A DNA stretch of 54,843 nt from a virus, in the IMG/VR virus record IMGVR_UViG_3300030110_001231, positions 1 through 54,843 of that record; one strand, written 5' to 3'. The translations under genes were made by a program, and so were the position numbers. Under the pieces are notes generated by a model. That model saw only the letters and a program-made list of their open reading frames with translations, searched no databases and was not told the origin of the DNA. Shown piece after piece: positions 3,073-13,725 of this stretch. Position 1 is the first letter of the stretch. Every line of letters begins with the position of its first letter.

Positions 3073-3735
3073 TTAATTACTTCCTTTTACTAATGTATTA
3101 TCGCCTCCAGCTGGTGAGGCATTATTTCTCATATCATCCTGTCTTGTCCTTCTGGCTTCATTTAATAAGTCAGTAAAGGCTCGTTGATACTCTTGTTCCC
3201 AAATCTGAGCCGCAGAGTAATTTTTCATAAACATACAAGCTTCCTTCATACTAGCATAAAACAATGCATTAGAACAATATTTGGTAAAGAAATTCTCTTG
3301 GTGCACTGAGGTTGCTGCTGTTGGTTGGACAATATAAGACATTTCACAATCATAGGCCGACACTGGTGTGGGAGCTATCAGTAAATTATCAAAGCCAAAG
3401 TTGGCATAATATCTAGGCACTCCTATACTTGTTCGTTGCGGCCAATAATCATTTAAATATTCATCGGTCTTTTGTAATAAATTAATACGTGTACCGTCAG
3501 ACTTTATAATATTTAAATTTTTTATAATTAAGGTGTTTAATGGTTTAGTAATAAACGGATCTCCAATAACCGTATTTGATGTTGCATATTGTACGACACC
3601 ATATGAATCTATTTCTCTAGTTAGTCTTGCTTCAGCTCTTTCTATAAAAGCTGGGATGTCTCCAACAAACTCTGTGCTGGTATCTTCACTTGTTGTTTTG
3701 ATTCTGTTTACTAATTGGTTGTATGTTATACTCAT
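3073..3735 (-). CDS. Head-tail adaptor-like protein
   Basis: A 220-aa protein. The N-terminal helical signature (PAFIERAEARLTREIDSYGV) and the later LLIAPTPVSAYDCEMSYI segment resemble the adaptor/neck proteins of podoviruses related to phage SU10 and P22 gp4. Such proteins form the ring under the portal. It overlaps the upstream gene by an ATGA (3732-3735), which suggests translational coupling. A second protein with a related pattern lies at 5433-6125. The family assignment is from memory of the motif, so the exact ring it forms is uncertain. Confidence 0.6.
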   Translation of the reverse strand: MSITYNQLVNRIKTTSEDTSTEFVGDIPAFIERAEARLTREIDSYGVVQYATSNTVIGDPFITKPLNTLIIKNLNIIKSDGTRINLLQKTDEYLNDYWPQRTSIGVPRYYANFGFDNLLIAPTPVSAYDCEMSYIVQPTAATSVHQENFFTKYCSNALFYASMKEACMFMKNYSAAQIWEQEYQRAFTDLLNEARRTRQDDMRNNASPAGGDNTLVKGSN

Positions 3736-4706
3736 ATCTTCTTAGCCTTCCATATTTCAGAACCACCAGCAAAAACTTTCGGTGTCCATATTCCTCTTAT
3801 GTGTGTTCTAAATCTAGCACTAACTCCTGTTAATACCAAGTTACCATCACCGTTTATGTTCGGCGATATAACTCTTGTTCTAATTACTGGTTGGAAATTT
3901 GCCTTACCTCCCATATTTGCATGTGCACTACATTGATAGTATAACGTAGTTGGTCCACTATTTACAACAAAGATTTGTGTATAAGCTCCAGCATTACCCG
4001 GAGTCCCTACTGTATAAACATTAGTTGAAAAAAGTGTACTTCTAGCTGCATCTAAATAAAATCGTAATGGATGACCATCATTAGAACTATCGGATTGATC
4101 AAAGGTATATAATCCACGACCCTTAACTAAATTTAAACCATACTGTTGTCTACCGTCTATAAAATATTTGTTAGCTCCTCCTACATTTACAACCGTTACT
4201 TTAAATGTCTTACCACCATTGTATATTACTGGGTTAGCTCCAGCCCCAACATTTTCATTACCTGTTGAGAATGTTGCCGATGCTTGTGATGGAATAACAT
4301 TTGTTCCAAAAAAGGCTACAGCATCTCTTAATGTAAAACTTGGTGATAGTCCTGTTAAAGAAACTTTTGGACTACCTGTGACTGATGCACTTCTTAATGT
4401 AGTTACTAATGCTACCCCTGTAACATTATGTGTTTTAATAACTTCGACTATTGCTGATCGTAAACTAAATCCTATATTTGCTCTGGTGACAGATACATTA
4501 GCATTAGCTGCTGTGGTTACATTACGAAGAGATAAACTTATTCCTGCGTTAGTTACAAAAGCCGTGCCCGGAATAGTTACTGCTACGGAACGAACAGTAG
4601 TGGATAGTGAAACTCCTGTTACCGTAACCGATCGATCTACAACACTACGGTTCCATGCACCTGAGTTCCAAGTATTTCTACCGTATCCACTGGTAATCAC
4701 AGTCAT
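3732..4706 (-). CDS. Virion protein with cupredoxin-like domain
   Basis: A 324-aa protein in three parts. Residues about 25-135 hold degenerate repeats of roughly 28 aa with a recurring V-x-L-R-S/D-A core (STTVRSVAV, ISLSLRNV, FSLRSAIVEV, TTLRSASVTG, FTLRDAVAF). Residues about 165-290 resemble a cupredoxin fold: a histidine in DGHPLRFYLD and a late TLYYQCSAHANMGG loop with Cys-x2-His-x2-Met, reminiscent of type-1 copper ligands. The C-terminus returns to the repeat type (LVLTGVSARFRTHI). Position among tail genes indicates a structural role. Whether copper is bound cannot be told from sequence; the His-Met spacing is shorter than in plastocyanin. Confidence 0.6.
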   Translation of the reverse strand: MTVITSGYGRNTWNSGAWNRSVVDRSVTVTGVSLSTTVRSVAVTIPGTAFVTNAGISLSLRNVTTAANANVSVTRANIGFSLRSAIVEVIKTHNVTGVALVTTLRSASVTGSPKVSLTGLSPSFTLRDAVAFFGTNVIPSQASATFSTGNENVGAGANPVIYNGGKTFKVTVVNVGGANKYFIDGRQQYGLNLVKGRGLYTFDQSDSSNDGHPLRFYLDAARSTLFSTNVYTVGTPGNAGAYTQIFVVNSGPTTLYYQCSAHANMGGKANFQPVIRTRVISPNINGDGNLVLTGVSARFRTHIRGIWTPKVFAGGSEIWKAKKI

Positions 4707-5163: not shown

Positions 5164-5433
5164 TTAGTTACCTCTCTTTGTAAATGTTGAATCATCAGGA
5201 CTCCACCCAGCATCACCAGTTGTAGCTAGTACAGTATCTGGACGTGCATCCCTCAAGTTTTCATTGTCATCAATTCTTGGAGTTTTGTTTTGTGGATGAT
5301 CAATAATATTATATCGCCCATCCGTTTCCGAAGCTCCAACAACTAATCCCGTAGGCTCTTTGACTCTATCAGAATATCTAAATCGAAATCCTGATCGATC
5401 GCAGATAAAGTATGCATACTTACCTCTTGCCAT
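5164..5433 (-). CDS. Small conserved structural-region protein
   Basis: An 89-aa protein beginning MARGKYAYFICDRSGFRFRY. The CDRSGFRF motif followed by a charged, Pro- and Asp-rich tail is recurrent in marine podoviruses next to adaptor genes. It overlaps the upstream gene by one base and so is part of the tail/neck transcript. Only one cysteine is visible near the N-terminus, so a zinc site is not supported. Function unknown. Confidence 0.55.
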   Translation of the reverse strand: MARGKYAYFICDRSGFRFRYSDRVKEPTGLVVGASETDGRYNIIDHPQNKTPRIDDNENLRDARPDTVLATTGDAGWSPDDSTFTKRGN

Positions 5434-13302: not shown

Positions 13303-13725
13303 TTACTTACTGATATCCAAATAGTTAGGATCAAGATCCGCTGGGTCTGGGATAACCATTAACACTTGGTCATCAAACAACAACAACATTCTAATACCTT
13401 TGTAAAAGAATTTATCACCTTGATACTTACCATAAACAACATAGTCACCAGGTTTACACCATGCTCGACCTTTAAACTTATCTCTATCAGCATAGGCAAG
13501 TTCGCCTACTTTTAAAACACGACCAATAGTTGTTAAGTATCTAGCATCATCTTTAAATTTATCAGGTAATAAAATACCACCTTTTGTTTTTTCTCTAATT
13601 GCAACTGGTCTAATTAAAACATGGTAACCAGGAATGTTAGGTAATACCTTTGGATCAGGTGATTCTTTATGTGTAATCCAGTCATCGTTACCAGCTATGG
13701 CTGTTGCTACTCCTGCTGCTTTCAT
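13303..13725 (-). CDS. groES: GroES-like co-chaperonin
   Basis: A 140-aa protein. After a 30-aa extension, residues about 32-135 follow the Cpn10 pattern: GYHVLIRPVAIREKTKGGIL (first strand and mobile loop), TTIGRVLKVGELAY, WCKPGDYVVYGKYQG and RMLLLFDDQVLMVI. It would cap host GroEL and probably favours folding of the capsid protein encoded next door, as T4 gp31 does (known for that family; inferred here). It overlaps the start of its upstream neighbour by 4 bases (ATGA). Confidence 0.85.
   Translation of the reverse strand: MKAAGVATAIAGNDDWITHKESPDPKVLPNIPGYHVLIRPVAIREKTKGGILLPDKFKDDARYLTTIGRVLKVGELAYADRDKFKGRAWCKPGDYVVYGKYQGDKFFYKGIRMLLLFDDQVLMVIPDPADLDPNYLDISK

What the first reader, a model, noticed from the sequence alone, without database searches (positions are those of the whole stretch)
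3732..4706. Cupredoxin-like copper site in a tail protein
Seen: GHPLRFYLD and TLYYQCSAHANMGG give His, Cys, His and Met in the order of type-1 copper proteins, inside a beta-rich virion protein with repeated 28-aa flanks. The Cys-x2-His part matches plastocyanin; the His-Met gap is shorter. Inference: a metal- or glycan-binding virion module.
Basis: partly seen in the sequence, partly recalled or inferred. Interest (0 to 1): 0.55.

Follow-up and report, generated by a model that had tools for sequence, protein, structure and literature searches.

The report
Blue-copper module in marine phage tails
A virion-cluster protein of an uncultured ocean phage carries a domain predicted with high confidence to be a blue-copper (cupredoxin) fold with all four copper-binding residues, and the same module recurs in structural proteins of other marine phages, so these particles may carry copper.

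Summary
Confirmed, with one detail wrong. The 324-aa minus-strand ORF (3732-4706) holds a ~110-aa module with ligands H212, C259, H262, M265. AlphaFold2 on 144 relatives gives a confident all-beta domain (pLDDT 91.6); its best solved matches are rusticyanin and copper nitrite reductase. Profile-profile comparison with ten PF00127 copper proteins gives E 1e-8 and pairs all four ligands. In 25 copies from 24 phage loci found by tblastn (median identity 37%), seven columns never vary: the four ligands and three aromatics. The loop, Cys-x2-His-x2-Met, has amicyanin's spacing. The window protein itself has no Pfam hit.

The module is a mobile cassette: tail, baseplate and other structural proteins of pelagiphages, cyanophages and a methylophage, plus bacterial lipoproteins and adhesin-like proteins. 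Cupredoxin membership is well supported by sequence and predicted structure. Copper loading, redox activity and function are untested; zinc or an empty site is the main rival. None of the papers listed by my searches describes a cupredoxin in a virion protein.

The parts
3732..4706 (-). Gene for the 324-aa protein that carries the module; its stop codon overlaps the start of the next gene by 4 bases (3732-3735)
3885..4214 (-). Cupredoxin module, residues 165-274; only copy in the 58,972-base record at E up to 0.001
   Evidence: profile match 5.6e-46; AF2; Foldseek and VIA; hhalign
4071..4073 (-). Codon of H212, first His ligand (GHPLRF)
   Evidence: sequence; 144 of 144, 25 of 25
3930..3932 (-). 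Codon of C259, Cys ligand, only Cys in the protein
   Evidence: sequence
3921..3923 (-). Codon of H262, second His ligand
   Evidence: sequence
3912..3914 (-). Codon of M265, axial Met ligand; Gln in 2 of 76 non-redundant genome-contig copies
   Evidence: sequence
4233..4631 (-). N-terminal repeat region, residues 26-158, offsets multiples of 22 aa
   Evidence: only the best pair beats shuffles; no confident fold, residues 1-158 below pLDDT 50
3073..3735 (-). Next gene, SU10-like head-tail adaptor; puts the module gene in the virion cluster
   Evidence: PF24175 E 3.4e-21
5164..5433 (-). 89-aa upstream gene; its homologues are joined to the same module in 16 of 238 module-bearing frames
   Evidence: blastp E up to 1e-3; frame count

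Best explanation
The module is a cupredoxin domain with an intact type-1 copper ligand set (H212, C259, H262, M265; short C-x2-H-x2-M loop), spliced as a mobile cassette into a repeat-containing tail or neck protein of a phage related to the pelagiphages HTVC023P and HTVC027P. Supported by homology and structure prediction: fold, family, complete ligand set. Inferred: (1) it binds copper in the finished particle; (2) because virion proteins are made in the host cytoplasm, where free copper is very low, the metal is taken up after lysis; (3) the site serves as an extracellular metal module on the particle that stabilises the domain and takes part in contact with the host surface, rather than as an electron carrier in a metabolic chain.
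For: AF2 model of residues 156-278: pLDDT 91.6, pTM 0.86, nine strands; H57 (=H212) just before a strand, C104 (=C259) the last residue of a strand, H107/M110 in the next loop, as in cupredoxins (arrangement recalled). Foldseek: rusticyanin E 3.6e-4, probability 1.00. VIA-align: Z 9.4 copper nitrite reductase, 8.9 rusticyanin over 110 residues at 3.1 A. hhalign of A2 with ten PF00127 proteins: 95.6%, E 1.1e-8, all four ligands paired with plastocyanin's; control with the protein's own repeat region E 0.57 (a small alignment of 13 rows). 19 of 144 relatives hit PF00127 at E up to 0.1, best 2e-5. The Woeseiaceae copies in L206 and L204 lie, by my conversion of coordinates, at the places that pass Pfam's cut-off (24.5 and 24.0 against 21.2 bits). 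Ligands invariant in 25 of 25 phage copies. Met is replaced by Gln in 2 of 76 copies, the swap named for stellacyanin in PMC4059628 (passage). 138 of 144 modules have a single Cys, so no disulfide within the module explains it. Virion context: adaptor gene, tail and baseplate PHROG labels.
Against: No metal was measured. The window protein has no Pfam match up to E 10; PDB sequence searches give nothing significant. Ligand distances could not be read. Foldseek TM-scores to solved cupredoxins are about 0.4-0.6 and the E-values modest; the VIA scores are only a little above the 7-8 that the tool calls typical for models without a clear match. Cys/His2/Met can hold other metals or stay empty. As far as I recall, cupredoxins are loaded outside the cytoplasm, which a phage protein reaches only at lysis. 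Position in the particle is inferred from labels and gene order.
Confidence: 0.6

Rival explanations
1. The site holds zinc (loaded in the host cytoplasm) or stays empty, and only stabilises the fold of a tail protein.
For: Virion proteins are made in the cytoplasm, and the ligand set tolerates other metals (both recalled). Metal sites in phage fibres are precedented: iron in T4 gp37 and predicted in alterophage R22Y (PMC11705849, abstract and passages).
Against: Order and spacing are those of copper sites, and the axial Met, weak in zinc sites, is kept in 25 of 25 phage copies.
Confidence: 0.2
2. Trojan-horse use: copper-loaded modules are recognised by host outer-membrane metal-uptake receptors, as proposed for iron-loaded phage tails.
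For: The module sits in proteins labelled tail fibre or baseplate in several phages; parallels the iron hypothesis (PMC11705849).
Against: No receptor evidence; hosts as unlike as SAR11, picocyanobacteria and OM43 would need suitable copper receptors. This protein has no HxH motif.
Confidence: 0.1
3. A redox role: the site passes electrons at the host surface or removes oxidants around the particle.
For: The structural neighbours are redox proteins.
Against: No redox partner was identified; I did not search the whole record for one beyond PF00127, which is absent.
Confidence: 0.07
4. The domain is only a structural or adhesive beta-sandwich, and the ligands persist by descent.
For: Two module-bearing phage proteins carry immunoglobulin-type labels (P-HM2 note PF07686; MED4-213). 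Degenerate copies exist in L215.
Against: Of the seven invariant columns in the tblastn-found phage set four are the ligands; copies that lost a ligand other than Met-to-Gln are 2 of 147 non-redundant copies (71 viral, 76 genome).
Confidence: 0.05

Closest known systems
Cupredoxins of the plastocyanin/azurin family (PF00127): amicyanin, pseudoazurin, plastocyanin
   Same: Fold, His...Cys-x2-His...Met order, aromatic-x-Cys before the loop; C-x2-H-x2-M spacing as in CTPHPFM, the loop named in the title of PDB 2vmj (that this loop is amicyanin's is recalled)
   Different: A cassette inside a phage structural protein instead of a secreted soluble electron carrier; Pro (in some phages Gln, Ala or Gly) after the first His where L240's plastocyanin has Asn; a GTPGxxGAYT stretch; the window sequence is below Pfam detection
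Rusticyanin and cupredoxin domains of copper nitrite reductases and laccases
   Same: Best structural matches
   Different: 16-19% identity to rusticyanin entries in the Foldseek alignments; longer ligand loop in rusticyanin (recalled)
Iron-binding HxH tail fibres (T4 gp37, alterophage R22Y; PMC11705849, passages)
   Same: Metal site in a phage fibre
   Different: Other metal, fold and motif; no HxH here
PHROG 30742, 677, 27200 (marine phage tail proteins)
   Same: Their profiles match this module
   Different: Labelled tail fibre, baseplate connector or unknown; no copper function named

Membership tests
Cupredoxin superfamily | Cupredoxin-type beta-sandwich | tested here: met
   predicted model: pLDDT 91.6; Foldseek probability 1.00 to rusticyanin; VIA Z 8.9 over 110 residues
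Cupredoxin superfamily | Type-1 ligands His, Cys, His, Met in order, Cys at a strand end, conserved | tested here: met
Cupredoxin superfamily | Ligands within bonding distance of one metal | not testable with these tools
   model coordinates are not exposed
Cupredoxin superfamily | Binds copper with a type-1 spectrum | not testable with these tools
   needs purified protein
Pfam PF00127 Copper-bind | Sequence above the curated score | tested here: not met
   window protein and module: no match. 19 of 144 relatives match at E up to 0.1 and two genome places pass the cut-off: the link is by relatives and profiles
Amicyanin-type ligand loop | Cys-x2-His-x2-Met spacing | tested here: met
   144 of 144 in A2; 22 of 25 phage copies by my reading, the other three one residue longer
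HxH iron tail-fibre sites | His-x-His motifs | tested here: not met
   none in the 324 aa

The most novel reading that the evidence does not exclude
Phages of abundant ocean bacteria (SAR11, Prochlorococcus, Synechococcus, OM43) carry blue-copper centres on their tails or baseplates: particles leave the host with empty type-1 sites, load copper outside, and use the metal-loaded module in host contact, so that phages are part of the marine copper-ligand pool.
Probability: 0.25. Interest if true: 0.82.

Novelty: new variant of a known kind. Interest (0 to 1): 0.6.

Why it matters
If the sites hold copper, virion proteins would be a new place for type-1 copper, and marine phages, already proposed as iron-binding ligands through HxH fibres (PMC11705849, passages), would be copper-binding particles as well. 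It gives a concrete, testable function to an unlabelled module found in structural proteins of many marine phages, and ties them to surface-type proteins of SAR86, Woeseiaceae and flavobacteria that use the same cassette.

Tried and rejected
Glycan binding: no support in the window protein. HxH iron site: absent. 28-aa repeat: not found. Direct sequence links to solved cupredoxins are too weak to use: pseudoazurin E 0.2, first of 5, with A1 and 0.43, third of 5, with A2, next to unrelated chains. PF25489 (At5g54830-like; 20 of 144 relatives, best E 0.0013) was not followed. Plasmids: no match at E 0.01. NCBIfam: nothing relevant in 19 members. The whole-protein AF2 model is poor outside residues 159-275 (mean pLDDT 51.9), so no fold is claimed for the repeats. 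A FastTree tree of A2 put 39 copies that I called bacterial surface proteins in five pure clades (28 copies) plus 11 scattered; that sorting was by eye, whose output was cut, so no argument rests on it.

Selection and dropped rows. Scans used seed patterns, one of which in each contains Cys-x-x-His. Check of that bias: of 37 copies without the seed, 35 cover all four columns; 31 are HCHM, 2 HCHQ, 1 HNNY, 1 VCHM; the viral ones are 10 of 10 HCHM. Only the best 80 loci were kept of 141 and 533. A2 left out copies over 90% alike, copies under 80 residues and all copies of L215, which include the degenerate ones; one A2 row (L003) equals the window. The phage set left out hits weaker than 1e-10, including a second Syn1 stretch (8e-6) whose printed part lacks the Cys-His part. 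The 24 module-bearing phage loci are a hand-picked, mostly one-per-phage part of the listed hits.

Literature: searches (0 papers; 524, 20 listed; 5, all listed; 2,071, 15 listed; 1 listed; 43, 25 listed; 21, 10 listed), combining cupredoxin, plastocyanin, plastocyanin-like or copper-binding with phage, tail fiber, virion, bacteriophage or cyanophage. None of the listed papers is, by title and abstract start, about a cupredoxin in a virion protein; unlisted ones were not seen, and most subscription journals are not held. Passages only were read of PMC4059628, PMC11705849, PMC3037559, PMC9004378 and PMC3909814.

Full report
What was seen. The gene is a 324-aa ORF on the minus strand, 3732-4706, in a 58,972-base virus record. 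Its stop codon overlaps by four bases the start of the next gene, an SU10-like head-tail adaptor (PF24175, E 3.4e-21). By large terminase the nearest phage records include pelagiphages HTVC027P and HTVC023P, phage 023Pt_psg01 and DSL-LC04, at 37-39% identity. The proposed ligands are H212, C259, H262 and M265; C259 is the only Cys and M265 the only Met besides the start.

Is it more than chance? tblastn of the protein finds 119 of 50,697 phage records; by name they are Synechococcus, Prochlorococcus, cyanophage, Pelagibacter, Methylophilales and uncultured marine phages. No record covers 80% of the query, and the 60 listed match within residues 155-314, under labels such as tail fibre, virion structural, baseplate or hypothetical. 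Among copies made non-redundant at 90%, the four residues are HCHM in 71 of 71 viral and 72 of 76 genome-contig copies; the exceptions are HCHQ (L182, L215), HNNY and VCHM (both L215). In A2 (144 rows) the only invariant columns are His, Cys and His, with Met in 143 and Gln in one. The check that does not use motif seeds is the phage set: of 26 phage loci fetched, 24 were taken for a module match (23 with the window protein, P-HM2 with a relative's module) and two for their adaptor gene. The 24 hold 25 copies, median pairwise identity 37%, minimum 20%. Seven columns are invariant: H, C, H, M and three aromatic residues. The residue after the first His varies there (Pro, Gln, Ala, Gly), so it is the His itself that is held.

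Fold. AF2 on A2 gives pLDDT 91.6 and pTM 0.86. Foldseek against solved structures has seven matches at E up to 0.001: six rusticyanin entries and a copper nitrite reductase. Multicopper oxidases and laccases follow, with one other family, SO1698, from rank 11. The second look gives Z 9.4 (nitrite reductase) and 8.9 (a rusticyanin mutant); the tool warns that best scores of 7-8 are common without true kinship, so this is support rather than proof, but the 50 entries shown are copper nitrite reductases, rusticyanins, laccases and ascorbate oxidase, aligned over most of the domain. In BFVD 66 viral models match at E up to 0.001, among them proteins of S-TIM5, P-SSM2, P-TIM68 and S-RIM14.

Family. 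The window protein has no Pfam match up to E 10. The family as a whole does connect: 19 of 144 relatives match PF00127 at E up to 0.1 (which ones is not told), and the Woeseiaceae copies in L206 and L204 lie at the places that pass Pfam's cut-off in genome scans (coordinates converted by hand). hhalign with ten PF00127 proteins gives 95.6% and E 1.1e-8, pairing H, C, H and M with the plastocyanin ligands; the control with the protein's own repeat region, a smaller alignment, gives E 0.57. Profile searches of PDB sequences stay insignificant. The loop C-x2-H-x2-M has the spacing of CTPHPFM, named in the title of PDB 2vmj and, from memory, amicyanin's.

Architecture. In the window the module follows repeats with offsets in multiples of 22 aa. 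Elsewhere, among 140 viral copies in closed frames, 104 are internal, 29 N-terminal and 7 C-terminal; these counts include near-identical and twice-fetched contigs. Homologues of the upstream gene 5164-5433 are joined to the module in 16 of 238 module-bearing frames. Around the adaptor gene of HTVC027P and HTVC023P no module is found in the 14.6 and 14.5 kb fetched. On genome contigs it occurs in frames that begin with a lipoprotein-like ACGGGG stretch (SAR86, Woeseiaceae), two of them only 167 and 182 aa from stop to stop (L218, L205), in frames of over a thousand residues in flavobacteria and other Bacteroidetes, and in phage-like tail proteins (read by eye). It is therefore best seen as a mobile extracellular cassette.

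How it probably works. Supported by computation: fold, family and a complete, strictly kept ligand set. Inferred: which metal, when it is loaded and what it does. Phage proteins are made in the cytoplasm, and I recall no cupredoxin that is loaded there; loading after lysis is the likelier course, and a zinc-loaded or empty site is the main rival. A surface metal module that stabilises the domain and takes part in host contact fits fibres and adhesin-like proteins alike. Virion location rests on labels and gene order; 'virion structural' labels of T4-like cyanophages trace in part to the S-SM1 virion proteome (PMC3037559, passages), but I did not see the module proteins in its table.

Novelty. 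None of the papers listed describes a cupredoxin in a virion protein. Against full novelty: PF00127 already reaches some relatives, so automatic annotation may name copper binding for them. Public labels seen here are tail fibre, structural, unknown or immunoglobulin. I call it a known kind of domain in a new setting.

Noticed in passing
window 5164-5433: 89-aa gene; a homologue in L181 has a zinc-ribbon-like Cys pattern (by eye), and homologues are joined to the cupredoxin module in 16 frames.
   Followed up: partly
window 13303-13725: Reads like a GroES co-chaperone; HTVC027P has a gene so annotated upstream of its capsid gene. By eye, no family search.
   Followed up: no
L203, L215, L247 (contig of 189,106 bases, Prochlorococcus single cell): The contig has the size and look of a T4-like cyanophage genome; it holds several module copies, some degenerate, and a plastocyanin-like gene.
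   Followed up: no
L245, L250: PF00127 proteins with SHPFYIKT where plastocyanin has APHN, in look between plastocyanin and the phage module.
   Followed up: partly
BFVD matches: Giant-virus 'beta-sandwich proteins' (LCMAC201, LCMAC202, LCPAC304) match the module's fold at E 7e-6 to 3e-5.
   Followed up: no
L276 (P-HM2); MED4-213: Module-bearing phage proteins carry immunoglobulin-type labels (PF07686 as V-set is recalled), possibly a misreading of the cupredoxin fold.
   Followed up: no
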